Assembly: GCA_001687465.1 (NCBI GenBank)
Contig: LVLI01000177.1
Coordinates: forward strand, 1 to 64,000
Origin: Halocafeteria seosinensis
Lineage: Eukaryota; Sar; Bigyra; Bicosoecida
Direction of reading: 5' to 3'
Length of the DNA: 64,000 nt
How positions within the stretch are numbered: position 1 is the stretch's first letter; each line of letters begins with the position of its first letter. This document shows positions 741-32,100 of the stretch, piece after piece. The notes under the pieces were generated by a model. That model was given only the letters and a program-made list of their open reading frames with translations. It was not told the origin of the DNA and searched no databases. Both the position numbers and the translations under genes were made by a program.

Positions 741-1328
741 GGGATTCATGACATGTAACGGATAGCCCACTGACAATTGGAAGTGGTCACGTTTGGAACA
801 ACATGTGTTGGTATTGAGTACTGTAATTAACTACCCTGTTCGTGAAATGTGTCCAAATACATCCCTCTTTTCTAATTTCCAAAGCAATAGAACAGTGTGA
901 AAGAATTTGGCCGACGTACGTGCGTCCATTATACGTAGCTCGATTAAACGGTTCAATTTGAACCAAGGTATACTGTACATACCCACGTACACACGTACCA
1001 CGGTATGTAAATGCCAGTGTAGGCGCCATGTGTTAGTCGACTGGACCAAATGAAGTCAGGTTGACCTTTCTCTTCCTCCTTATCAAACGAGTGCCAAACG
1101 GGAGCTGCATTGTCTCTGGATGAGTACTCACTCATACAGTACTTGTAAGAGCATGATTTGGTTTACACGGAGGAGTTGTAAGTTCCTCCGTGCGACGAGG
1201 TGCTGAGTCAGCCTGTGATGCTCGGTGCTGTGTGTTACATAAGAACAGAACAAAACGTATGGTTCGATGAAGATTGCACTCAGTTGGTATATTTTGGTAC
1301 AATAATACAGCAGTGAATAGACAGAAAC
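559..1328. other. Intergenic region upstream of RRP15
   Basis: No gene recognised. It holds the AC microsatellite. A CAGTACTTGTA motif at about 1137-1147, some 190 bp before the RRP15 start, recurs in other intergenic regions of this window. The short open frames here have no recognisable features. Confidence 0.6.
686..738. repeat. (AC)n microsatellite
   Basis: An uninterrupted AC dinucleotide tract of about 53 bp lies in the gap between the first membrane-protein exon and RRP15. It is likely to be length-polymorphic. Confidence 0.97.
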
Positions 1329-2292
1329 ATGCCCAAACGCAAACGCCCTCGTGAAGTTGAGGCAGCTCCTGCCGCTTCGGAGGCTGATAGCGAGACACAT
1401 ACAGCTTCCATAGCCAATACCGAGTCTCAGGAAGGCAGTTCGAATGAGCAAGAATCTTCCGCCTTCCATGGGGCTGTACAAAAAGTGCTGTCGAGGGAGC
1501 TACATGCACCTGTATGTCTTTCTTGAAGTGACGCGGCATGGATTTTCTGGTGTATATGGCGTCTATTGGGCCTCGTTGTCCTATTTTCTGCAGAATCCCG
1601 TGCTCGCCAAGCGCCATACAGCCAGCCTAAAGGCGTCTTCGGCGGATCAGAAGGAAAAGAGGGAGGCACAGAAGGACATACAAACGCGCAAACAACGGCG
1701 TCGACAGAACCTGGTGAAGCCATCGGTGCTACAACAGGGCCATGAGCGTAAATTGAGGCGTGTAGCCACCCGAGGTGGTAAGTGCTGGCCCTGGTATTCG
1801 CTGATACGACTGATTCACTCGTTACGTGTATTCGTGGATGGCAGTGGTGGCCTTATTCAATGCAATCCGGAAACATCAGAAGACGGCTTCCTTGACAGAG
1901 GAGGAAGAAGACAAACTCGCCTGTAAGTACTAAACAGCTTTCTTCGGGAAGAAGTGTGAGATAGTGCTAATGTTGGAAATGCTTACTCCATTGCAGTTCA
2001 CAAAAACAAAATGGAAGAGCAGAAATCTGGCTTCTTGGATCTACTCAAATCTACTGAACGGACACTAGAGGAGGGGAACAAACAATCGTCAGCAAAAAAG
2101 AGTAAGAAGAGTGCAAAAAAAGGAAAGCAAGATGAGGGAGAAAACAAGCAATGGAGTGTCTTCAAGGATGACTTTATGATGGGCGCTCGGGCCAAGGACT
2201 GGAATAAGCCAGAGTCCGACTCAGACGAAGAGGACGGTTGGAACTTCTCTTCCGGAGCACTGGACGGAGATAACGATGACGAAAACCTATAA
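1329..2292 (+). CDS. RRP15: RRP15-like ribosomal RNA processing protein, four exons
   Basis: Likely a nucleolar factor for pre-60S rRNA processing. I assemble exons 1329-1511, 1594-1777, 1845-1922 and 1997-2292; donors are GTATGT, GTAAGT and GTAAGT, and all junction phases agree. The product starts with a basic, acidic-patched tail (MPKRKRPREVEAAP). The core then shows the family hallmarks: a NPVLAKR segment, a long K/R-rich helix, the phrase RKLRRVATRGVVALFNAI formed across the second intron, and SGFLDLLKS formed after the third. Near the C-terminus WSVFKDDFMMGARAKDW matches the conserved end of Rrp15, followed by an acidic tail. Joining exons 2 and 3 restores the VATRGVV motif, which supports the splice model. 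It converges on TPX2, whose stop lies 113 bp away. Confidence 0.88.
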
Positions 2293-5565: not shown

Positions 5566-8320
5566 TTAGTCTTCCAAGACTTTTGCATCCTCCTCTTCGT
5601 ACTGATACGATTCCTGCTGACTTCTTCGACTCTTTTTCCTTTCTTCTTGTTCAGCCTCTTTCTTCTTGTCCTCCTCCTTCGCTTGTTCAATCCTATTCCA
5701 ATCAATTTCTTTGTCAGCATATTGTCGAAACGATGGCAACATCTCCTGGCGCTTCGTTTGTTCCAAATGTCGTCGTCTGTATGCTATAACGGTATCTATA
5801 TGTGTTTTATATTTCTGGGAAAGTTCAAGGGCTCTGCAGATACAAAGTAATTTTGAAAAGCCACGAGTTCAACCAAAGTATGCACAACAATGGAGGGGCT
5901 TGGAACCTACCTTTCCCAGCGGAACAACTTAATGTTCATCTTAATCGCCCGATACAAGAGCGGGGGTTGAGCTTGTAACAAAATCTTCTCCCCTTCATCG
6001 ACTTCCCCTTTTAAGACAGATAATTCGGCAAGTCGGCCCTCACTAGACGGGATACTTTTTATTTTGGATATGTACTGAGCTTTGGCAACTTCTCGGAGAG
6101 ATGCAAGAGAAAGCTCTGCAGTCGCGAGCTGCTTTGAATTAAGTGCCATCCCTGCTAGACTTCCCCACAGGGGATCTTGCTTGAGAAACCGGCAAAGCCG
6201 TATTGCTGCTTCCCATTTGCCGGCAGATACGTAATTGTGCAATAAGAGTGGGCCAGTGGCCATCAAAGAGTGTACCAACGCTCCATCAGCCCGTCGAACG
6301 ACCAATCTAGTGCTTTGAAACTCATGGATATGTGGCCTCTTACCAAACTCCGGGGAAGGAGAGTATACTTTCACTGGTTCTAATAAGTCCGTATCCACAA
6401 AAGCGGCATGTGGATAATACCATGACACGGTCTGTCCGTCCATGAGAGCAGTCAAGATATCTGCTCTCTGATTCCATGCGACACTATCAACCATGCTCCC
6501 GAGCTTCACGGCATTTGGCTTCACTGCGCGTGTGACATAGAGATCGTCGTTGCTATCAACGATGGCAAGCAATCGTTCAGGTAAAGAGCTTCCACTTTGG
6601 GAAAGATAAAGTTGGGATACTTCGGAGCCGTGGTTGTATCCGTTCCCGATAGCCCTACCTGTTCGCACATCGAAAAGCCGAACCGCTGCATGATCACAGT
6701 TTAAATGCAATGACGTATGAAACGTGCATTATATACACGGCAAAAAGCTTTTTGACATACTCTTCGAGTCGCTGGTATCTAGCACAGCCACGCAATCCGA
6801 TGCCAGGGAGAGAATACTCTGATCAAGTCGCTCCACTTGCAAACCAGGGAATTTTATGGCATTTAAGGGACGTCCATCGTATGTATAAATTTGTACCCCC
6901 GTGGTTGTGTCCACCGTTAGGAAATGCTTTGCCGATTGGAGAATAGTAGAAACAGAGCCTTTGCAATCAAATATATGCGGCGTGTTCCAGTTATTTGTCT
7001 TGTACACGTAAATCTGCGATAGGGTTGCAACCACGAAATAGCCGAACGCCAAACTCATGTTGCATATACGATCACGAAAATCGAGGATTTCCGTGGAGTC
7101 CATGGAAAGATCGCGAACCCGAATGGTCGCTGGCCCAGTGATAGTACACTCCACATGTTCCCAGCTAGCGACCTGTCCAATGAGATACGCTAATACGAGG
7201 GAGTCATCAGCTCCTGCAGCAGCAATCTGCGTGCCATCCGGAGACCATTTGATGGAGTTGACGCTACCTGTTCGAGGACATTCGCGATGGTATGACCACT
7301 GCATAAACAAGAGACCCGAAATTAAAGAGAACACTCTACAAACAATTCAAAAAAGTAACGACGTACCCCAGTCTTGTCACAAAGCCGTAGCAGATTGTAC
7401 GATCCCACAGCAAAGACGGTCCCCGAAGGACTCCAGGCTACCGATGTAATAACGTGTTCCAAGGGATTACTACAAAAGAGCTGCCTTCCGAACGAATCCC
7501 AAACTCTGTATTTCCTATCTTCTCCTCCACTAACGATCAAATTGGTCACTTTATTCCAGCTCAGTGTCAATACAGCCCCCGCATGAGCTTCCCAGTTCAT
7601 CCCTTTCCTATCCGTTGTGGTGGAGCAAATCCGCAGCTCGTGGCCGCACGTGTATAAAACTTGATCATCATTCGGACTCCAACACGCCGCGTACACTGGC
7701 TTGGGGGCAGAGGCCAATAGAGACCTTAACATGCCATTTCGACTCCACACTTTGACGCTTCCATCCTCTCCTCCCGTGACGATGGCTGAGCCATCCGACG
7801 TGCAATCGACGTCAATGACCGCCACGCCATTGTTTGTCACTTGGACAGCTTTCTCCTCTCGCCCTTGTCGATTGAGAAAACGCAAATATCCATCCGTGCA
7901 GGCCACCACCACCAAGTCCCCGCCAGCAGCAGCCCCTGTCGGGGGTGCTTTCTCCCCTTTGGCCCTCTTTTTGGAGGTCGATGACGACGAAGAAGACGCC
8001 CCCGTGGCAACATTTCCTGTAGGACTGGCATTAGGGTTCTTTAAGATGGTCATACTAGTGACAGAGTACTTGAAGCGCTTGCTTAACGCTTCCATAAAGT
8101 CCCCTTCACTGCTCCATTTGAACAATCTACCATCGTCTCCCACAGAAATCAGCTCCTGATTGCGCGTCCATGCACATGCCGTCACAGCATCTTCATCTGC
8201 GTATACATACAGATGGTAGGGGGTGGAGCTGTATTTGGGTGTAGGGCTGGCAGACTTACGGGACGCTCCTCGTAATTCGGAGACATCAAAGCGCATTTCA
8301 CCCGATTTTATCTTGACCAC
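5566..8320 (-). CDS. IFT80: IFT80, intraflagellar transport complex B WD-repeat protein, four exons
   Basis: Exons 8320-7367, 7298-6761, 6685-5911 and 5833-5566 join in phase into about 844 residues, against 777 in human. IFT80 is a peripheral IFT-B subunit needed to build cilia. Strong family phrases: SVKVWSRNGMLRSLLAS, KYRVWDSFGRQLF, LLRLCDKTGWSYHRE (formed across intron 1), NNWNTPHIFDCKGSVS, VSWYYPHAAFVD, RRADGALVHSL, YVSAGKWEAAIRLCRF and, across intron 3, FRWERALELSQKYKTHIDTV. The first half is a WD40 propeller, followed by a second propeller and a helical C-terminus. A lineage-specific insert rich in Ser and Lys (ASSSSSSTSKKRAKGEK) sits in the first propeller, and the C-terminus is a charged E/K/Q helix. 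This gene is direct evidence that the organism makes a cilium. Confidence 0.95.
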
Positions 8321-17548: not shown

Positions 17549-20500
17549 ATGCCTGCAAAAGAGCAGCAACAGGAGGGGGAGAGGAAGCCTCCTGCTTCCA
17601 AAAGTCCAAGCGCAGCACAGGCTCAAAGTGTTGTTTCTTCCTCTACCACACGCGCTAGACAAGATGCACTAGGGGGACAAGTGTCATCCTCTTCGCTCTG
17701 GCCCTCTGCAGGCTCCCTGTGGGTGCCGGCATGGCAGGAGCCCCATGTGAATTTATTCAGCACGCTTCAAATTCATCGCCTGGCTCAAATCGTGGAGCGC
17801 CAGGAACGCTTACAAGGAGGAACTGGGGCTTCTACAGCCGATGACTCTTCCGATAAGCAGACGGCAGCTTCAGGAACCAAGAGCAGCAAAGAGGACCACG
17901 ATGCCGAAACGACGACGGATAAACATACAACAAGCGGGAGTTCATCGAAAATGAGCCAATCCATGAGTTCCCCTGAATGGGCTGCGAAACACGTTATGCG
18001 CCGTAAGGGCAATGTAAACCGCATTATGGTAAGGAACCTGGCATGTCTCCTTGCACAGAGGCAATGACCGGCTGTCTGTATCTCTGCTCCAGGACCATGC
18101 CATTGGGAAACTCATCTTCAAAGTGGTGGGACGAGTATCCACTTCCAACTATATCGAAATTCCTCGAGCTGTGTACGTACAACTATGTAACTTTTACCCT
18201 TCTCCTCCCGTCCTTTTCACAACTGCCCCATTTTCCGATGGTTTTGGCACAGGAAGGGAAAGAAAGCTGCCTCGCGAAAGACTCCCGTTACAGATATTAC
18301 GAATCTGGGACTGAAAGGGACGTTCGTCTACATTCAAGCTAGAGGAATGGCACGAAAAGCAAAGCCTCAAAGTAGTCAGAAGACTAAGAAAGGGTTTATG
18401 AATTTTTTGGACGGGGAAGAACGTAAAGCGTCGACAATGCTTCCTGCGAGTTTCTACATCGACGTTGTAACAACTTCGAACTACCTGTACCGGTTGTCAT
18501 TTAGCTCCTTTCACACGGAGTTCGGAATGCGCCTTGAAAAGATTATAGAAATACCGATAGAGTACGACATCAACGCATTTTGCCGTGCTCTCAGGTGCTG
18601 TCTTCATTAATTGTCTTGGAACGTGCTCATTTACATTTGCAGGTTGTCCACTACCTGGTGTACAATGGCTATCAGCATCCCATCTCTTCTTGCTGCAGCC
18701 ACTGGAGGAAAGGAGTCCATGAAAACGTTCAGATGCGTCAAATCTTTTAAGTTTAGCTGTAATATGAGTATTCGTAACGTTTGGACTTCTAATGAACTAT
18801 ATGATGGGCGGGTAAGTTGTGGTCTATGTTGACCTGGACAGCTATTCTCTTTTGTGAAACGCGTCTACTTCTTGTTCCACAGGATATTCCTAAGGACATG
18901 GCATTGCCTCTTCCTGATAACACCGATTACTTTGATATGTTCGAATGGTATTTTGCACCTGTGTGTCCTACACGGAAAGACGACAAAGCCAAAAAGAAAA
19001 GCAGCCGCCGGAAAGGACCGAAGCAGCTCCCCGGCTTAAAACTGTCTCCTGAGCAGCACCAATACGCCGTGGAAGAACTAGAGGAGGTCCTTGGTGCCCG
19101 GAAAGATTTGGGTGTACGGTTTGCAAAAAAATCGAAGAAACAGAAGGAAGACAAAAAAGCGAAGGAAAAGGAAACTGACGAGGAAGAAGAGGAAGAAGAC
19201 TCCTCCGAAGATGAATCTCTTACTAGTGAATCCATGCAGGAAATTGAATCCGATCGAGAGTCGGACCTCGGCAACTTAGAGGAAGAGATCGAAGAGTTGC
19301 AGAAGCAGGAGCATGTGGATTCCTCTGCAGACCACACTCAAGCGGAGCGAAAGGAGCAAGCGCAAACAACAACAAAAAAGAGTGGAGAAGAACTGAAGCA
19401 AGAGCTCACTGGCATATCTGACAGGCTTACCAAAGCTAAAGTATCGAGTTTGGCAAACATTGATAATTCGCTTTGCACGTATCCGGTCACAGAAGGTACA
19501 AAACTGCTTGACGATATGAGTATGCTCGGCTGCACCGGTTCCCTCCAAAATAGTATTCGGTGGACCGAAAGCGGAAAGGAATTACTATATGCAGGTGGTC
19601 CTACTCTAGTTTCCTTATCCGTCTCGAGTTATTTTGAATCTGCAGAGGACGGTGAAAGTGGGTCCAAAGGGAGGTACATGTTTGCGTCTTCCAACTCCAC
19701 GTCAATTGAGGGCCGTGGAGAGATAGATGGTTGCCGTCTTCAGAACGGCGATGAAAGCACAAATGGGAAGTATAAGAGCTTACCTCAAAAACATTTTACT
19801 GGGCATGCCGGACCGGTTGTAGGATTTCGTCTATCTCCAAGAGAGGAATTCCTGGTCACGGTCTGCCCCTTCTCCCACTATCAAGGATATTGTACCCGAG
19901 TACCAGAGTTACGAATATGGGACTACAAGAGCTGCCGGTTGATGGCGGTCCTCCGGGGGTTCCTCAATAGAGAAGACAGACTAGAGGCAAAGTTATTTCC
20001 TTGGAGGTCTGCTGGGGAATGGCAGCCGCTAGAACCAGAGCGCGACCAAGGCGAAACGCGGCCTGCTAAAGTGGGGGAGCAATGCCTAGACGTGACCCGC
20101 GATGGAAACTGTGTTGTTGTCAATGGGACTGACTGGAGAGGAAGGACTGTCATAACATTGCTGGACGTATCAGAGTTTTGTAAGAAGTATTTCAAAGATA
20201 GAACCACCAATATTAACCGAAGCGCAATCAGAATATCTGCAAGGCAAATGTCGGATTTTCCAATTTCTACGATGAAGTGCATGCCGGGAATGGGTGGGGA
20301 AATTGTCTCCGCTGGCAAGGAAAACGTGAAGATTTGGAGAAGAAAAGAGGAACATTTTTCGGGTGCACCTGTAGTACTCTCCCAATATGCTCGAGGATGC
20401 GAGTTTACCAGTATCGCATTCGAACCACCGGCACTTCGCTCCGTTTCAGATGACTCTTTTTACTCCAAACGTCAAGTTAGCGGGATTGATTCTGCGTCAG

Positions 20501-23500
20501 GTTCAAAACGAATATTTGTCGCATCCTCTCAAGGGTGTATTCTTCAAATCAATTACAATACTCGTGCGTTGGAGGCAGTGTTTCAACTGCACACCGGCCC
20601 TATCCACGGAATTGATGTGAACGAAGGATTTTTTGTTTCCTGTGGTGCGGATGGGTTTCTTCGCATGTGGCCTCATGATTTTGGTACGTTCTTTTTGGAG
20701 GCTCATCATGATTGTCCGGTGACATCTGCCTCCATTTCTCCTGACGGCTTGAAGATTGCCAGTGTTACCCTCTTGGGGAGTGTTGGGATCTTGGATATAT
20801 CGAGTCAAAGTTACTCGACTTTGCTACGCCCTCATGCAAATACAGTGCACAGTATTGCCACTAGGGATGCCGCTAGTGGAGTTGCGGACTTAGTAACAGC
20901 TTCGTATGACGGGAGTATTCGTGCATGGAATACTGAATCTTGGAGCCCGTTAACCGAATTCACCCTAAGGGACAACGACAATCAGTGCACCGCGCTAGCG
21001 TTTTTTCCCTCTTCTATAAAATTTTCAGAAATGTCTGACGCAGTCGTTGCTGGCTTCGAATCGGGGAAAATAAGGGTCCTGGATGTAACTACAGCCTCTG
21101 TTATGTACGAATTTCATCAGCACCAAGTGGCTGTAAGCAAGATACATTTCATCAATGGGGATTCAGGGCAAGAGGGAAAAGAGGATAAGGATGCGTTACA
21201 GGACGCTCAGCGTCTTCTTATTGTATCAATTGCCAAAGATTTCAGTCTATGCGTTTACGATATAGGCAGAAAATTTACCCCAATCCGAATGTTGGACTTA
21301 TCTGGACTATTCGCAATGCCAGCCGTAGGAGGATTGGGGGGATATAAGGCTAGTGTGTCATTCAGTAATCGGTTAGGGAAATGCGTCGTTTCTTGCTACG
21401 TGAACGAAGAAGAAGGAACTGTTGAAAATTGCGAGGGAGTGGACTTCTCCCCGGTGTTGTTGGACTCGGTGGAATTTTCGATATCGGGGAAACTGGAACT
21501 GCAAAATACTAGTGTTGGCCCGGCGAGTCGTCGAACCACACAGCAATGTTCCCATCAAACGGCGGCAATGTCCGCGTTATCGCACGGAGACAGGAGCAAC
21601 GGCTCTTCGCCTTCAAAGGTAAAGGATGGTGTGCATCGATACCCCACTATGGCTACCCGCGTTGCGTTTGGTCCCAAAACAGATGTAGTATATGGGGGAA
21701 TGAATGATGGACGTATCTTCAAATGGGATGTTCACACAGGGAAACTACTGCAGAGTATTCAAAATTTGGGACTAGCTCCGTCCCGACGACTGCATGACAT
21801 GGCGCTGCCACCTTTTGCTATCACAACGTTAGAGCCTAGCTCTGATGGGAAACTTCTACTGACCGCTGCTAAAGACGGCGCAATTAGTGTATGGAACGCT
21901 GCATTGATGGGGCCGACTCCTAAAGACGCGCTGTGTCAACGTTTTGAGCCTTGCGTTGGACGATTTGGTCCCGCATCCTGGTGTGCCGGAGGGAATTATG
22001 TCGTTGCTGCCCCAGACGTACTACAGTGTGGTATGGAATCGAAGGCCTTGCGGCTCTTTGATGTTGCTGCAGAACAAGGGGTGCTTTCCGCAGCTGCAAA
22101 GGGGTGGAGACGTAACAGAAATGTGGGAGGACTGTTTGCTTCGGGTGCTGTTTTACGTTGGCGTGTAAATAATGGTCAGGAGCTTTGGTCTGAGAAAGAG
22201 GAGCGGCCTGCCGAGTGCTCCCAACCTGCACCGGCAGACACTCCAGTAACAAGCAGTTTTGTCACATCGCAGCGGACGTTCACTGAATATAGAGAGGCGC
22301 GAACTACACCATTGAAAGAAGCTCAAAATCAGTCTTTTGACAGCCTTGGCACTGATATAGCACCAATAGCGGAACGGGAAGTGGATACTGAAGGGTCGGA
22401 GTTATACGAGCCCGTTGAGGAGGAGTGGCACCATGACAACGGCTACCAGCCTGGAGATACCTCTGAACCTCCGGAAAATGTGGGCAAGTGTGATGTGGAC
22501 TCAGTTGGAAGGCCATCGGAGAGTAGACCTATACCACCTCCATCCCCTATTCGACAAGAGGCAGCCCACGAACGCTCCAGCTCGTCGTTTCAAGAACCAG
22601 ACCGATTCAGACAGAAGGCCGATGCACTGCAGGTTGCATCTTCTCTATTAGAATACCGGAATATGGGGTTTGATACCAGTGGCAAAGTCCCTGCTGTGTT
22701 TCTTGCCCATGCTAACGAAGTTGCTTTGCCTAAACGGAGTCAAGTTTTGGTCCAACCGTTGGATAGCCTCCAGCAGACCGTTATTCAGCTGAGTGAAGCG
22801 CATGAAAACGCCGTCGAAATAACAGCGTTGGCTTCCGATGACATTGGTTTCTGGTTGGCAGTCGGTCTGCGCCACCACTCCAAGAGAGGTAGCACAGGCG
22901 AAATCCAGCTGTGGTGTGCGGAGGACATGGACGACACTGGATCCGTGCACCAGTGGAAATGCTGCTACGCATTGGTTTGTCGCCATACAGTGCCGGTGGT
23001 TTGTACCGTAGATTCGCAATTTTCCTCGGTGGCTGCCCTGGTCGAAGCGGGTTCGGATGACGTATCTGGTGGCAAGTCGTTTAGCGTATCTGTTTGGAAC
23101 ATAGAAGGGATGAAGACTGGTGGTCAATCTGATTCATGTAGTCTCATAGACAAGCCAGACACTTCTTCGCTGATCGCTGAAAACTGCAGCTCTCCTGCTA
23201 AGAAACCTCCGGAATTTATATTCAAGTGGGACGCTAGAATCGGAGCAGTTGGGCTGGCTCTTATCAACATGGAGCCGTACGTAATCTTACCCAGGGGCAG
23301 GAACCGGTTTGGTTGCAAGAAGTTAGCAAGTCTATCAACAGAAGAGGATACTCACAGGTTTCAAAGGGTAAGTCATGCGGATCTGCGCATTACGCAAAAC
23401 GGTGGCGAGGAAGGTGTGCTGCTTGCTTTGGCTAAATCAAACCAGTCCTGCTTCCTTGGTTGGCTATCGTGGTCCCCCAATGACTTCAACACTCTTACAT

Positions 23501-25218
23501 GGAAGGTAGTGGCTGAACTTCTCGTAGCGAAAGCTCCTAAGAAAATCAACCGTGTGGCGTCTCTAAATCTGTTGGAAAACAGTATAGTTTGCGTGTTTCG
23601 AGGCGGAAACGTGAATGTTTGGGACTATAGTCTCTCTCCAGAAAACGTGGCCGCTGCTACCAAGGGAAAGGGTGCATCGCGCAAGGCAAGAGCTCCGCAA
23701 AGCCAGCCAAAGCAGCAGGGGAAAAGCGTCCCACGGAAGCACCTGAACCTAGACAGCAACGTCCCACTGCAGAAAGGAGTTGTCCAAAAACATTCAACTC
23801 AGCCATTTGGCGATCTGTCCGGAGCCACACTACCAATGGTAAACGTGCAAAATTCGGTTTCCCTCGTTCCATCGCAACGGCAAGTTCGAGTGAAGGGGCA
23901 TCCGAACTCCGTCCTTATGAGATGCTGCGATGGTTACGATACTCAGTTGCTCTTCGTCAGCGAGCTTGGCTCATTATGGAGGCTACAATGCACATTCGTG
24001 GATCCGACAAGGTTCGGGGCCACAGAGGAAACGTGCTACTGGGAAGAAGCTGTTCTTCCTCAACCGCTGGAGGTGCTGGGTGTTCAATTTTCGGACGCCT
24101 CGTCAAGTCTAGTCTCTCTTTCTTTCCTACGGCGCGATACCCTCTTGTTAATGACCCATAGCTGCGTCAAGGATGAGGCGTTTTCAAGATTTCCCGATTT
24201 ACAAGCAATTACTGGTTCAACTATCCTCGAATGTGCAGATGTTAGATGTAACTCCCGAGTATATATGGACTTATCCGGAGGGGTGGATGATGGACAGGAA
24301 GTCCTGTGTGTGTCCGTACAATCAAAATTGATGATTTTTACGGTGTCTACCCTAACTCTCATCGATGAATTCGTATTCGCCGAAGACTGCGGACTGATTA
24401 GCTCCTTGTGCGTATATCCGCTGAAAACTGCGCATGTCGCGCTGGTGGGGATGGACCGTGGGGATGTCTACGCCGTTGTTTACGATAACACGGGCGTGAA
24501 GTCCTGGTGGGAGTTTTCGGCCCTGATTGATCCTCAATGTCACGCTTTTTCAAGGCATGGTTCCAATACGATTCTTCAAATCCGATCCTACTCCTCTGGT
24601 AACTCTACTTGTGTTGCCATAGCATCCGGAAATGGCTTCTTGTCGATCTGGGACGTGTCACCAACTCGGAAGGCGAGTAACACCTCACAACAGCCAATGA
24701 AAATGAGGCTGCTGGACACAATGGCCCTTTCTGCTGACCTCCGTGATAGCGCTGAAAATACTCCGCTCCAGGAGAGGGTGGACATAGCATTCAATTCCGC
24801 CGATACAATGTCAATGATTTGTACCCGCCGAACGTCCGACGAAGAACCAGCCTATTTCTTAGTTAGTTACTCTCTTGAGGACAAGAGAATAACAAATGTT
24901 TCGGATCCACTGCCCTTTACCCCCGTGAGGCTAGTAGCTGCCACGTCGGACGAGAGACGACAATGGACGGGAATCTCCTTCCACCGATCAGATGATGAGG
25001 GATCGCAAGTGGCCTGGCTCCGGAGCGGATCGTCAAGTAATTTTGGTCTCGTGAAATTCGTCACTCCGGCCTTTTCCGTAGGTACTCAGTTAAGGGCCGA
25101 GTGTCCTCTAGGGGTTTTTCCATCCATTGCTGCGGCTTCCAGCGAAGGCTTGACCATATTTAGTCATTCTCCGTCTGATGGAAATGATTCGCTCAATTAT
25201 AGTAACTGTGAGACTTGA
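17549..25218 (+). CDS. WDR90: WDR90/POC16 centriolar WD-repeat protein with N-terminal CFAP20 domain, five exons
   Basis: Exons 17549-18028, 18093-18172, 18253-18594, 18643-18811 and 18883-25218 join in phase to about 2,468 residues. The first four small exons encode a CFAP20 (DUF667) domain: PAWQEPHVNLFSTLQIHRL, DHAIGKLIFKVVGRVSTSNY, ITNLGLKGTFVYIQARG, a Lys-rich insert, FYIDVVTTSNYLYRLSFSSF and CNMSIRNVWTSNELYDGRDI. The last exon, 6.3 kb with no introns, begins with an acidic K/E region and then a long series of WD40 repeats with GH/WD-like phrases (for example VSCGADGFLRMWP and VTASYDGSIRAWN). CFAP20 domain plus several WD propellers is the WDR90/POC16 architecture; these proteins bind the inner scaffold of centriolar microtubules. 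Size exceeds human WDR90 (about 1,750). The start at 17549 was preferred to the in-frame ATG at 17471, but either is possible. Confidence 0.88.
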
Positions 25219-26160: not shown

Positions 26161-29121
26161 ATGCCTGTGGCGTATTCGGCGCACGCCGCCAGTGTGGCGT
26201 CAGCTTCGCAGCGCTTTCTGACTCAAGGAAGCCAGGAGGAAGGTGTATACTGTCACAGAGACAAATTGCGCGAGCATGTCGCTTCGCAGTATGCCGGAGA
26301 CTCCCAAGCGCGTCTGTTGGAGCACCAGGAGAGCGTGCAGGACCGACAGAAGCAACTGGAACGCGAAAAACAAGTCTACGACGCGGCGATTGAGATGTCG
26401 AAATCGAGCGCCGTCAAAGAACTCGTACAAGAATTGCATCAGAACACATTGCGCTGTTTCATCCTCACGGACCCCACGTTGGAAGGACTGCCCATCGTGT
26501 ATGCGTCCCCTGGGTTCCTGGAAATGACGGCGTACAGCCAAGAGGAAGTGCTGGGCAGGAATTGTCGGTTCCTCCAAGGCGCTGCCACGGATTTCTTGAC
26601 GGCACGGCGCATAGGGGACGCCATTGGGAACAAAAAGGAGTACACGGTGCAGATTCTCAATTACAAGAAAGATGGAACCCCCTTCTGGAATCTCCTCCAT
26701 TTGGCTCCCGTCACCCGACCTGACAACGAGGAGAACGAAAACGTAGAGGAGCGCTACTTCTATGTGGGAATTCAAACCAATGTCACTGTACCCAAGAAGT
26801 TGCAACCCAAGAAATCTGATCGAGAGGAAGACATGCAGAAAACTGGATCTTCTTATGTTGCCAAACACGGATTTACGGCTTTTCTGCCAGCGAGCTTACA
26901 TTCCACCATTTCAGATGATACTTCCAAAGTTGGATCCTCTTTGTCAAAGTTTTCAACGTTTCGCCAAGGATTAAAAAATGGAGTCACGTTTGAGGCAACC
27001 AATCTGTCCTACAGTATTCCCGGACCGAAGAAAGAAGACAAAGTTGCGAAAATCCTAGACGATATTTCCGTGTACGCAAAGCCAGGGGAAATGCTGGCAA
27101 TCATGGGTCCCAGCGGTTCTGGGAAGACAACTTTGCTCAACGCATTAGCAGGAAGGGCTAGCAATAGTTTGACCCTGGAGGATCCAAGCTTTGATCATAG
27201 TAAAGCAACATCGAAGCCTGTTCTTAGTGGGTCCATAACGCTGAATGGGAAGCCAAGGAAGAAGGATGACAAGCGGCGACTTGCATATGTTATGCAAGAC
27301 GATGTACTGTTTGACAACCTTACAGTTGAAGAAACGTTGTACTACAGCGCAAAGCTGAAAATGCCTGAGTCAACTCCTGAAGAGACCATCCAACAAAGAG
27401 TGGAAGAGGTCATATCTCTGTTAAAGCTCGACAAATGTAGACAAACTATCATCGGCTCCCCTATGCAACGAGGCGTCTCTGGAGGGGAGCGCAAACGGGT
27501 GAATATCGGGTAAGTTCCTGTGGTATCATGCAGACACCCCCCTTATTGATACGTGACGTTGTTGCTCTTTACTATGTCAAAAATCAGAAATGAGATTGTA
27601 ACAGACCCCTCTGTCCTGTTACTGGATGAACCGACCAGTGGTTTGGATTCCTCTAATGCTCTGCGACTGTTATCGAGCCTCGCGATGTTGGCTGCTGCGG
27701 GAAGGACAGTGATGACGACCATTCATCAACCATCGACTCAGATATTCAACTGTTTTGACAAACTATTGCTTTTGGGGGAAGGTAACGTTCTTTACTTTGG
27801 AACCGCTTCCGATGCGCTACACTATTTCGCGTCTCCCCCGCTGAAGCAAGTTTGCCCACCTCATTGGAACCCAGCGGATTTCCTACTTGGTAAGCCCTGA
27901 TTGGCGCTATCTAGGTATCTGTACCGTCTGTGTACTTAATTCGACCGTCTTACGTTCGCAGAGGTCTCCTCATATGGCAAAATCGTTGCTGATGCGGCTG
28001 AGCAATGGACAAAGCAGCAGCAACAGCTGGACTATGTTGCTAAGCATTGTGGTCATGACGTCTTCGATCTTCCTGGTGATGAAGAAATGAACGGAAGCAC
28101 AGATGACAATGCAGGAGAAACAGGTGAAGTCGTATTGAAGATCCAAAACCATGGAGGGGATAAAGGCAAAGAAAATGCAGAGGCATCGAATGAGAAATGG
28201 CCTACTTCATTTTTAACACAACTAAGTGTGCTAATGCGAAGGTCATTCAAACAAGGACGGGGTAGCACAATGACTAGCTACTACCTCGGGCAGACAATCG
28301 CGATCACCCTTGTAACATCTCTACTCTGGTGGCAAATAGATGATAATGCTTCTACGATTAGTGATCGTGAGGGTTTCGTTTTCTTCGCTAGTGTCTATTG
28401 GGGCTTCAACCCTTTATTCAATGCTCTCACTACATTCCCAGCCGAACGATCCGTGCTCACTCGCGAACGCGCCGGAGGAATGTATCGTCTTTCGGCGTAT
28501 TTCCTTGCCAAGAGTTGTGCGGATATACCTCTGGTCTTTACCTATCCGACTATATTTGCAGTTGTTGCATACTGGGCGGTAGGTCTTCGTGCGGAAGCCG
28601 GGAGCTTTTTCACTTTTCTTTTTGGTTTGTACGTGAATGGTTTGGCCGCACAAGCACTTGGTTTGGCTGTTTCCAGCTGGGTCTTGGATTTTCGTAAGAG
28701 TTTAGTTGTGGTACGTATTCGTCCGCATTTACACAGCATGACTTCGACTCTTTAAAGTATATGTTTTTTCCTTATTTGTGGCGTTCAGGCTGTCGTTCTC
28801 ATGCTATCCTTCATGTTAGCGGGCGGATTCTACATCCAGGACATACCTGTATTTATCAATTGGTATGCCGCTTTGGGTTTTGTATCCTATACATACCCGC
28901 TGATGATTCAAAACGAATTCTCGGACAGAGAATTTGATTGCGTTCAAGGCGAAAATGTTGCTTTTACCGGGTGCCCCGTTACGGGCGAAGACGTTGTTGA
29001 CAGATTAAACCCGTTCCTCAGAGAAATTGGTCCGAATTTCGGTATTTTGTTCATCATGGCTTTCGTGTTCCGCTTCATTGCATACTGGGGTTTACGGTAT
29101 CGGACAAAGTCCACTGCATGA
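26161..29121 (+). CDS. LOV photoreceptor domain fused to an ABCG half-transporter, four exons
   Basis: Exons 26161-27509, 27588-27889, 27962-28710 and 28789-29121 join in phase to 910 residues. Residues 1-95 are a charged helical leader ([18 protein letters not shown]). Residues about 98-209 form a LOV/PAS domain with [10 protein letters not shown]: the flavin-adduct cysteine is Cys135 (codon 26563-26565) and the polar flavin contacts are present (Asn134, Gln139, Asn167 in NYKKDG, Asn177 in FWN, Gln205 in YVGIQ). After a polar linker comes an ABC ATPase: Walker A GPSGSGKT (316-323), Q-loop Gln379, signature VSGGERKR (439-446), Walker B VLLLDE (459-464) and H-loop His496. The ABCG-type membrane domain follows ([19 protein letters not shown] onward). 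The NBD-then-TMD order marks it as a G-subfamily half-transporter that should dimerise. Light-gated transport is inference. Confidence 0.93.
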
Positions 29122-29188: not shown

Positions 29189-32100
29189 TCAAAGCAGTTG
29201 CTCCACCACGTTTCGACACCGGGAGCACAAATGATCGCCATCCGAGCTGACGCTAAGCTGTATCTGCCAGCAGCGTCGACATTTTTGTCCTTGGGCATGC
29301 CCAAGAATAACATTTATATTGTCTTCAGTCGATTCCTCGCTTGTAATGATACTGGAAGAGTTAAACGTTGCGGTCCCATTATACACAGCTTGCGACGTAC
29401 CCATGACTTCAGCCAATTCCAGGCTTTCTGCAATTGACGTGAGGGGCTGCGTTGAATCTCCATGTCCCTCTAACGTGTCGATGTACACGCATGCATCCAA
29501 AGGTGAGCCAATTAGTTTCCGAGTACGAGCTTCCTCGAGCAAACGATGGACCAGGTTTCTAGCTCTCAAAACCCTGTCCCATTGAGTAGCTATGGATTCG
29601 CTGTGCCATGTGCTTGGGATTGCTCTTCGTGTCAAGTGGAAAACACTCATGCTAGTACAGGGATTCAAAGTCCAGTCTTTCCCTTCGTTTTCATCTCCCT
29701 CTTTTGTTATCATAGCAACCGAATGCTGGAAAATATCTTCGGCAGTGTAGCATGCTATGGGCGCTATTCCGTTTACAAGAGTCACTAGTGATTCCCATAA
29801 TATTGCCTGTGTTTGTTCTCGAAGAGGATCAGATGGATGTTGGCAGTACAGCCGGTCTTTGACAAATTCCAAGTAACGCGACGACAGGTCGTTTGTAACG
29901 AAATTTGTCACGGCGGCAATAACTCTTGCAAAATTGAAATTAGAATATGCAGCGGTAATTTCGGTCTCCAGTGCAGCGAGTCTGTTGAGAGCAAACTGTT
30001 GGACAGGAGTGCAGCGGTTTATGTCAAGCACTGGTGAATCTCGAGCATGCTGAGTCCATGCACTCTGTATTCGGGCTTTACTTTCAATGACGCGTTCCAT
30101 GTTCAATGCATCAAAAAACTTGGGCATATACCCGTTTAAATTGGAAAGTAAGAATTTAGCCGTGTTTCGGACTCTTCGGAGGCTTTCCGCAGATTTCGCC
30201 ACCGCATCCGGAGATAAAACAATATCCCTAGAGTAGTCAGTTGATGCTACCCACCACCTACCCACATCTACGCCATAGGGAACATTGAAAAGGGCTTTCT
30301 TATTCTTGCCCTTGATCCCTTTTTTCTGCTTTGGTGCTCCGTCGATAATATCGCTGGGGGCAACGACATTGCCGATGCTCTTACTCATTTTTAAGGCTTG
30401 GGGATCTAGTACAAACCCATGCGTTACAATATTAGAAAACGGTACGCCAAACTTTGCGGCAATGGCTATTAAAAGACTTGACTGGAACCATCCTCGGTGT
30501 TGATCGCTTCCCTCCACAACGACATCTGACCGTTTGCCTTTCGCGAGCAGCGACTCACCGCTTCCCGACCGGTCCCACACAGATGCCCATGAACTCCCAC
30601 TATCAAACCAAACGTCGAATGTGTCCATTCCTCGACGGTACAGTTTAGCATTTTCCTCGGTGCGCATAGAACGAGGCAATAACTCACTCATAGGAGCCTG
30701 CCACCAGTAGTCAGTGCCATTCTTCGAAATGAGACTTTTAATGTTTTCGATACTTTCTTCCGTTAGCAGCGGTTCATCGGTGTCTCGATGGTACAAAACA
30801 GGAATAGGTACTCCCCATGGACGTTGCCGCGAAATGCACCACTCCGTTCGACTTTGCAGCATAGCCTGTAATCGGTTAATTCCGCTCTCCGGTACGAGTC
30901 GAATATTGCCCACTGCGAGTAAGCTCTGTGCAATTGCATCTTTCACATTTATAAACCACTGTGAAGTGGCACGGATGATTACGGGCTGCTTGCTTCTCCA
31001 ATCGTAGGGGTACCTGTGCGCATACTCAGCGGAGTGCAAAAGATAACCTTCTTTCTTCAAAAGTTCCATTACTGCATTATTTCCTTCATTCAACACCTCT
31101 TTACCCTCAAGTTCACGTACGTCGGACGAAAATTGTCCTCTATCGTTAACCGGACAAATAACTGGCATTTCTGGAGTCACAGAATGCTCGCTGTTCAATT
31201 TCTCGATGGCGTACCAGTCATCAACACCATGCCCTGGTGCTGTGTGAACAAGTCCCGTTCCATTGTCCATTGTTACGTAATCAGCGGGGACTATTACACT
31301 AGTCCTTTCGCATCCTACATTGCAACCAGATAATGGATGAAGGCATTGTAAACCTGCAAGGCGCCTACCCTCGAGAGTGCATATGTCCTCAGCAAAACAT
31401 TCCATGCTAATCCCCGCAGATACTTGGTGCACGAAATGATCCTTCAATTCACAAGCCACTAAGAAAAAACTAGGGAATGCGAAACCTTGTTCACTTCGTA
31501 CAGCTATCACACTGTACTCTTGATCGGGCGCGATCGCTATAGCCACGTTCGCAGGAATAGTCCATGGAGTCGTGGTCCAGATTGCTGCGGCAACCGGAAA
31601 GTCGGAGCAGTCGACGTCGATTTCAATGTTTTTACAGTATTCCTCCACCGAGTTAGCAATTTTAGATAACGTATCCGTAGGGTCCCAAGGTGTCTGGCTG
31701 TATGTTAACTCCTCCTTGGCTGCTAGAGGAAAAGAGGCATATATTTGTTGAGAAATATGGTTATCCTGTATAGTAAAACATTACAGCATAATCCGTAGAA
31801 ACAACTATACATCTCTGTACAGAGCGCTACGCCGTACTTTATACTCCAATTCTGCCTCAGCTAAAGCAGTTTGGGTCGAAGGGGACCAGTATACGGGTTT
31901 GACACCTCGAAACACGACTCCATTTTTCCAAAGTTGCTGGAATACCTCTGCATAACAATATAAAGAAGCAAAATCCAGACATGCAGAGCCCAACCACGCA
32001 AAACTTTGCTAACCTAGCTCATTAGACTCGTAAGAAGCATCCATGGTTCGATATGTGTGCTCGGTCGAGGACCAATCCGCTAGAACACCCCAGCGCTTGA

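What the first reader, a model, noticed from the sequence alone, without database searches (positions are those of the whole stretch)
26161..29121. LOV photoreceptor domain fused to an ABCG transporter: a candidate light-gated pump
Seen: one open gene, with phase-consistent introns, encodes a canonical LOV domain ([10 protein letters not shown] with Cys135; Asn134, Gln139, Asn167, Asn177 and Gln205 kept) directly ahead of an ABC ATPase with Walker A, Q-loop, signature, Walker B and H-loop all intact, and an ABCG membrane domain. Known: LOV domains form a flavin-cysteine adduct in blue light and pass the change through flanking helices; familiar partners are kinases, bZIP, F-box, STAS and zinc-finger domains. 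Inference: light could control ATP hydrolysis or dimerisation of the transporter. I do not know of an established description of this pairing. The fusion is within one uninterrupted exon (LOV through signature motif), so it is not a splice-model artefact.
Basis: partly seen in the sequence, partly recalled or inferred. Interest (0 to 1): 0.92.

Follow-up and report, generated by a model that had tools for sequence, protein, structure and literature searches.

The report
Light-sensor domain fused to membrane pump
A single-celled eukaryote encodes one protein that joins a blue-light sensor to a membrane export pump; the fusion is real and has relatives in other lineages, so it may be a natural light-controlled pump, but it has not been tested here or in any paper found.

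Summary
The gene at 26161-29121 (+), four exons, 910 aa, joins a LOV domain (Cys135 plus six further flavin-contact residues), a 67-residue linker and a half-size ABCG exporter with all ATPase motifs. A database protein named after a transcript-type record matches at 908 of 910 residues, spliced as modelled. A metagenome fragment (70-75% identical) keeps helix, LOV, linker and exon end. Seven relatives with a PAS/LOV ahead of an ABCG ATPase were found (a lower bound): four keep the reactive Cys, including Cyanophora and Mesostigma (as read from record names); three have lost it. On the ABCG part, the window protein and the six placed relatives mix with LOV-less exporters of one subgroup; an ancient fusion with losses and repeated fusion both fit. 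The host assembly shows no match to three photosynthesis families, yet holds one clear and one probable bZIP-LOV gene and three RGS-LOV genes. Seven paper searches combining LOV and ABC terms listed no such protein. Most likely mechanism: a blue-light flavin-Cys adduct is relayed by the flanking helix and linker to the ATPase dimer, changing export. Sequence supports light chemistry; coupling and substrate are inference.

The parts
26161..27509 (+). exon 1: N-terminus, pre-LOV helix, LOV, linker and ATPase through the signature motif
   Evidence: the relative P0121's predicted protein stops at the same VNIG residues
26305..26442 (+). residues 49-94, charged helix-like stretch ahead of LOV (possible coiled coil, by inspection only)
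   Evidence: sequence; 23 of 43 aligned residues identical in P0121
26443..26796 (+). LOV domain, residues 95-212
   Evidence: Pfam PAS_9; PDB match to phototropin LOV domains; 90 of 114 aligned residues identical in P0121
26563..26565 (+). codon of the adduct-forming Cys135 in GRNCRFLQG
26797..26997 (+). linker, residues 213-279, between LOV and the ATPase
   Evidence: 46 of 67 residues identical in P0121
27106..27129 (+). Walker A, residues 316-323
27475..27498 (+). ABC signature VSGGERKR, residues 439-446
27510..27587 (+). intron 1 (GTAAGT...CAG)
   Evidence: agrees with protein P0001
27588..27889 (+). exon 2: Walker B (27616-27639) and H-loop His496 (27724-27726)
27890..27961 (+). intron 2 (GTAAGC...CAG)
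27962..28710 (+). exon 3: end of the ATPase part, variable connector, start of the ABC2 membrane domain (from 28216)
28711..28788 (+). intron 3 (GTACGT...CAG)
28789..29121 (+). exon 4: rest of the membrane domain (ABC2_membrane match ends at 28920) and TGA stop

Best explanation
The gene encodes a LOV-ABCG protein: a half-size ABC exporter with its own blue-light sensor. Shown by sequence: LOV core with the Cys and flavin-contact residues, intact ATPase motifs, ABCG order (ATPase before membrane domain), a linker conserved in one relative, and one database protein that joins all parts. Inferred: LOV binds FMN; blue light makes a flavin-Cys135 adduct; the change passes through the helix before LOV and the linker after it into the ATPase; two half-transporters pair (as ABCG exporters do, recalled), so light alters ATPase closure and thus export of an unknown, perhaps hydrophobic, substrate. 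Direction (on or off in light) is not known.
For: LOV signature and best solved matches to phototropin LOV domains; intact ABC motifs; nearest solved relatives are ABCG25, CDR1-type pumps, ABCG1 and ABCG2, so a transporter and not a soluble ATPase; one protein from a transcript-type record joins all parts; the relative P0121 keeps helix (53%), LOV (79%), linker (69%) and ATPase up to residue 450 (75%), so the linker is conserved nearly as well as the domains; all seven LOV sites checked (N134, C135, R136, Q139, N167, N177, Q205) are also kept in P0005 and P0104, at 42% and 38% overall identity; five other LOV domains of the host also keep the Cys.
Against: The Cys is replaced in 3 of 8 proteins: Leu in P0251, Ser in P0249, Leu in P0021, so this layout does not always work by the Cys adduct. 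P0004 keeps Cys but has Ser for N134 and no Gln at the Q205 site (Ser in the alignment, Thr in that). P0121, the only close relative, lacks the membrane half in its predicted protein. No phototropin-type J-alpha helix was tested for; no structure could be predicted. The host shows no match to three photosynthesis families, so the benefit of light control is unclear.
Confidence: 0.55

Rival explanations
1. LOV is a working light sensor, but it controls assembly, location or partner recruitment of the transporter and not the transport cycle itself; the ABCG part may be a constitutive pump or a membrane anchor for signalling.
For: LOV domains of aureochromes act by light-driven dimerisation (title of PMC4721966 and abstract start of PMC8184817 in the listing); a charged helix-like stretch precedes LOV; the same genome has LOV next to bZIP and RGS, i.e. 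signalling outputs.
Against: All ATPase motifs are intact, more than an anchor would need; in all eight proteins the PAS/LOV lies on the N-terminal side of the ATPase with only a linker between.
Confidence: 0.22
2. The domain is a flavin-based redox or metabolite sensor that acts without light; Cys is kept for other reasons in some lineages and lost in others.
For: Three of eight members lack the Cys; P0251 keeps the N134, R136, N167 and N177 equivalents, so may still bind flavin; the host looks non-photosynthetic.
Against: All seven checked sites are kept in 4 of 8 proteins, including lineages far apart; the host has five other LOV domains with the Cys, which suggests that LOV photochemistry is in use there.
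Confidence: 0.15
3. The domain is a structural leftover of an ancient PAS-ABCG fusion without present regulatory role.
For: Related ABCGs without a recognised PAS/LOV exist side by side with those that have one; the LOV sites are largely lost in P0249 and P0021.
Against: Against P0121, LOV is the best-conserved part of exon 1 (79%; ATPase part 75%).
Confidence: 0.06
4. Assembly or gene-model artefact.
For: A step in third-position GC lies at the LOV/linker border.
Against: Single open exon, independent database protein and a 70-75% identical metagenome protein with the same order of parts.
Confidence: 0.02

Closest known systems
Phototropin LOV domains (NPH1-1 chain 2v0u, which I recall as oat LOV2; phototropin-2 chains)
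   Same: LOV core with the Cys and flavin contacts; best solved matches of the sensor part
   Different: Output is a Ser/Thr kinase in phototropins; Pfam finds no kinase here
Aureochromes (bZIP-LOV) of stramenopiles
   Same: Same sensor class; the same genome has one clear and one probable bZIP-LOV gene
   Different: Output is DNA binding; LOV is C-terminal there (passage of PMC12558739) and N-terminal here; the LOV trees do not join the window LOV with the host's aureochrome LOVs, but are poorly resolved
RGS-LOV proteins (three in this genome)
   Same: LOV with a non-kinase output
   Different: RGS output, LOV after RGS; the three form their own LOV clade, placed near the window group only weakly (85/82)
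Half-size ABCG exporters, ABCG25 (PDB 8i38), also ABCG1/ABCG2
   Same: ATPase-then-membrane order and motifs
   Different: No sensor domain is known to me in these (recalled)
Proteins with PAS/LOV ahead of an ABCG ATPase in other lineages: P0005, P0104, P0004, P0121 (Cys kept); P0249, P0251, P0021 (Cys lost)
   Same: Order PAS/LOV, linker, ATPase and, in all but the fragment P0121, a membrane domain (P0249 and P0251 by precomputed Pfam)
   Different: No work on them was found; three lack the reactive Cys; P0104's membrane domain and P0004's LOV are incomplete as predicted

Membership tests
LOV photoreceptor domain | adduct Cys in GRNCRFLQG | tested here: met
   Cys135
LOV photoreceptor domain | flavin-contact residues N, R, Q, N, N, Q (list recalled) | tested here: met
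   N134, R136, Q139, N167, N177, Q205
LOV photoreceptor domain | sequence homology to proven LOV domains | tested here: met
   E 3.4e-31 to 2v0u; 150 distinct PDB sequences matched at 0.001, 60 shown
LOV photoreceptor domain | flavin binding and photocycle | not testable with these tools
   needs purified protein
ABCG half-transporter | ATPase N-terminal to an ABC2 membrane domain in one chain | tested here: met
   ABC_tran 299-467, ABC2_membrane 636-844
ABCG half-transporter | Walker A, Q-loop, signature, Walker B, H-loop intact | tested here: met
ABCG half-transporter | six transmembrane helices | tested here: inconclusive
   hydropathy alone gave runs at 735-759, 769-787, 790-819 and 876-904 only; the Pfam membrane domain is matched over 211 of 211 positions
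ABCG half-transporter | dimer and substrate transport | not testable with these tools
   no assay; structure prediction switched off
Phototropin | two LOV domains and a Ser/Thr kinase | tested here: not met
   one PAS/LOV match, no kinase
Aureochrome | bZIP before LOV | tested here: not met
   no bZIP match in the protein

The most novel reading that the evidence does not exclude
LOV-ABCG is an ancient class of ATP-driven, light-gated exporters, formed once before the ancestors of glaucophytes, streptophyte algae and stramenopiles diverged, still light-sensitive in several lineages, turned into a Cys-less sensor in others, and stripped of its sensor in land plants, whose ABCG9/14/21/25-like exporters would then descend from a light-gated pump.
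Probability: 0.25. Interest if true: 0.93.

Novelty: new variant of a known kind. Interest (0 to 1): 0.82.

Why it matters
LOV outputs known to me (recalled) are kinases, DNA-binding, F-box, STAS, RGS, phosphodiesterase and similar signalling parts; a transporter as direct output would be a new way for a cell to use light, in a host that seems not to photosynthesise. It would also be a ready-made optogenetic exporter, and could show how a sensor steers the ABC ATPase cycle. The occurrence of Cys-bearing and Cys-less versions of one layout makes the question of how sensors gain and lose photochemistry directly testable.

Tried and rejected
Artefact of splicing or assembly: rejected.

One clade of LOV/PAS-ABCGs on the ABCG part: rejected by AU test for the four LOV rows (p 0.0003) and for all seven PAS/LOV rows (p 2.6e-6). 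P0121 was not in these trees because it lacks the membrane half. LOV-less rows were hand-picked from the best hits: 25, 16. For the host, five ABCG loci were tried and L016 was dropped by the script; other ABC loci were not used. The table gives 'changes 1' for PAS only because unlabelled rows are not counted there; with all 31 rows counted the label needs 6 changes. The subgroup that holds the seven has support 83/91, not starred, and the root is a midpoint.

On the LOV part one clade is not rejected (p 0.32 for four Cys rows, 0.22 with P0251), but 111 columns resolve little. Nine of the 39 rows were left out of that second tree: Balamuthia, Chlorokybus (both with very long branches), the partial P0004, and six LOVs of three phototropins. 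So a single ancient fusion with losses and repeated fusion are both open.

Swap of LOV from another LOV gene of this genome after the split from P0121: not supported; window and P0121 LOVs join at 100/100 and the host's other five LOVs have third-position GC of 0.43-0.53. A general rise of GC at gene starts: not seen in six neighbouring ORFs (first 212 codons 0.43-0.48).

Prokaryotic or viral LOV-ABC: the viral scan (close relatives only) found no relative; of 20 prokaryote loci with a relative of the LOV part, 19 were looked at and no reading frame across the match had both ABC motifs (L039 was skipped by the script).

Limits of the protein searches: 8000 candidates scored each; only the best 120 of 7536, 4200 and 7913 hits are listed, crowded by full-size ABCGs and phototropins, so the number of fusions is a lower bound. 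The Cys-less motifs in the scan were written after I had seen those proteins.

Host name: I recall that record prefix GECG belongs to the heterotrophic bicosoecid Halocafeteria seosinensis; no call confirmed it, so it is only a lead.

Structure prediction: switched off.

Full report
What is there. The gene runs from an ATG at 26161 to a TGA at 29119-29121 on the + strand, in four exons (26161-27509, 27588-27889, 27962-28710, 28789-29121), and encodes 910 residues. Of the GT-AG combinations scanned, eight gave an open frame; the one with donors GTAAGT, GTAAGC and GTACGT is used. A EukProt protein, P0001, named as an ORF of record GECG01000057.1, is 910 residues long and differs at residues 601 (A/V) and 617 (D/E) only. 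I read the record as a transcript from its name; as one ORF spans what are three introns here, it can hardly be genomic DNA. So one transcript very probably carries the LOV and the transporter parts.

The sensor part. Pfam finds PAS_9 at 101-209 with 58.4 bits against a cut-off of 27. Against solved structures the best matches are phototropin LOV domains (NPH1-1 chain 2v0u, E 3.4e-31; 150 distinct sequences at 0.001, 60 shown). Asn134, Cys135, Arg136, Gln139, Asn167, Asn177 and Gln205 are present; that these are flavin contacts and the adduct cysteine is recalled knowledge of the LOV family. Chance cannot explain such a match.

The transporter part. ABC_tran 299-467 (100.3 bits) and ABC2_membrane 636-844 (133 bits, 211 of 211 profile positions). 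Walker A, Q-loop, signature, Walker B, D-loop and H-loop are intact. The nearest solved relatives are ABCG25 (E 1.3e-101), CDR1-type pumps, ABCG1 and ABCG2. It is a half-size ABCG. A simple hydropathy scan showed only part of the expected helices.

What joins them. Residues 49-94 before LOV look like a charged helix (inspection only) and residues 213-279 form the linker. In P0121, a 489-residue protein from a 3533-base environmental contig, identity is 46% over 1-48, 53% over 49-94, 79% over LOV, 69% over the linker and 75% over the ATPase up to residue 450. A Met of P0121 aligns with the start used here (MPIAYS/MPVAYS), although its predicted protein begins 43 residues earlier; it stops at the VNIG residues where exon 1 ends here, as expected if the same intron follows, which I could not check in its DNA. 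The conserved linker is the best sequence sign that the two parts work together.

Relatives. Three protein searches (best 120 listed each of 7536, 4200 and 7913) gave seven further proteins with a PAS/LOV ahead of an ABCG ATPase. Of the 318 proteins retrieved, 198 carried an ABC signature, and 7 of those, the window's own P0001 among them, also a LOV-like core motif ahead of Walker A; P0021 adds a PAS by Pfam. The seven relatives are P0121; P0004 (unnamed; N-terminally cut, PAS_9 20 bits, under the cut-off, but GRSCRFLQG is plain); P0005; P0104 (membrane domain matched over 2-146 of 211 only); P0249; P0251; and P0021 (Balamuthia mandrillaris, named by NCBI). P0104 and P0249 carry the codes Mesvir1 and Chlat1, which I read as Mesostigma viride and Chlorokybus atmophyticus (recalled). 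P0005 has a 'tig...' name of the same style as P0146, whose LOV domains are close sisters of those of a UniProt protein of Cyanophora paradoxa (P0132), so I take it as Cyanophora. The Cys is kept in 5 of 8 proteins including the window's, and all seven checked sites in 4 of 8 (P0001, P0121, P0005, P0104). P0251, P0249 and P0021 have Leu, Ser and Leu in its place; P0004 has Ser for N134 and Ser or Thr, by alignment, for Q205.

History. On the ABCG part, the window protein and the six placed relatives (not P0121) lie in one subgroup of 23 rows (support 83/91), away from four other ABCGs of the same genome, which form their own clade (100/100). Within it they mix with LOV-less proteins: P0249 and P0104 branch first in a group (100/100) whose other six rows are three named land-plant proteins and three unnamed ones; the window protein stands with P0004 (95/94). 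One clade of all seven is rejected (p 2.6e-6) and the label needs six changes over the 31 rows. On the LOV part one origin is not rejected (p 0.32); window and P0121 join at 100/100, and a wider tree puts them, with P0004, near the host's RGS-LOVs and the second LOV of a Mesostigma phototropin, weakly (85/82). A single old fusion with several losses, or several fusions at the same place, both fit; gene models that lack the N-terminus could exaggerate losses. The names ABCG9, 14, 21 and 25 come from annotations of hits.

The host. The assembly (30.6 Mb, 605 contigs) has no match to the light-harvesting, phycobilisome or Photo_RC families. The control genomes are prokaryotes, of which only Synechococcus rang, so the sensitivity for intron-split nuclear genes is not measured, and a plastid contig may be missing. 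This suggests, but does not prove, a non-photosynthetic organism. It has one clear bZIP-LOV gene (bZIP_1 30.8 bits, cut-off 27.6), one probable one (bZIP_2 18 bits, under the cut-off, in a neighbouring frame) and three RGS-LOV genes; hence probably a stramenopile (inference from aureochromes). An IFT80 piece lies about 20 kb away in the window, which suggests a flagellate. The species is not established.

Mechanism. Shown: a sensor with its key residues, an ATPase and exporter with theirs, in one chain with a connector conserved in the closest relative. Inferred: FMN binding; blue-light adduct at Cys135; relay through the flanking helix and linker to the ATPase pair; change of export. I give light control of transport or ATPase 0.55, light control of assembly or location 0.22, light-independent flavin sensing 0.15. 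The loss of Cys in three relatives is the main fact against a purely photochemical view of the layout, and the Cys kept in the host's five other LOV domains a main fact for it here.

Literature. Of ten full-text searches in CC-licensed PMC papers, seven held both LOV and ABC terms; three asked about the host or its record. None of the papers listed was, by its title and abstract start, about a LOV-ABC protein; the lists are capped (20 of 40, 20 of 65, 20 of 56; complete). Passages were seen of PMC12558739 (algal photoreceptor review; no occurrence of 'transporter'), PMC5447177, PMC5294986 and PMC10120064. In one search the 20 listed papers matched only 'photoreceptor ABC transporter', mostly retinal ABCA4. 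In one search PMC3110179 appears: phot1 inhibiting ABCB19, i.e. a LOV kinase acting on a separate ABC transporter (title and abstract start). The LOV survey of Glantz and others (PNAS 2016, recalled) is not held, so an entry there cannot be excluded.

Verdict.

Noticed in passing
26161-26796 versus 26797-29121: Third-position GC is 0.63 in residues 1-94 and 0.69 in LOV but 0.37 in the linker and 0.47 in the ABC part; none of 663 overlapping 118-codon windows of three long neighbouring ORFs reaches 0.68 (max 0.653), and the host's other five LOVs have 0.43-0.53. Unexplained.
   Followed up: partly
L001 1372-2124 (-), L002 about 758-1860 (+): One clear and one probable bZIP-LOV (aureochrome-type) gene in a genome without matches to three photosynthesis families; one abstract (PMC11174801, listing) says aureochromes have so far been detected only in stramenopile algae.
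   Followed up: partly
L004 1414-2637 (-), L005 1006-1911 (+), L006 1039-1896 (+): Three RGS-LOV genes, two of them about 3 kb apart in opposite orientation on one contig, forming one LOV clade.
   Followed up: partly
P0249, P0251, P0021: PAS-ABCG proteins whose LOV Cys is replaced; P0251 keeps four other LOV sites and may be a Cys-less flavin sensor.
   Followed up: partly
18805-25218 (+), 5907-6728 (-), 29189-31780 (-): Other genes of the window: a 2137-residue WD40 ORF, an IFT80 piece, and an isoleucyl-tRNA-synthetase-like gene convergent with the LOV-ABCG gene.
   Followed up: no
P0146 (tig00001042_g6598): A protein with two LOV domains and a bHLH domain (PF00010) by precomputed Pfam, apparently from Cyanophora.
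   Followed up: no
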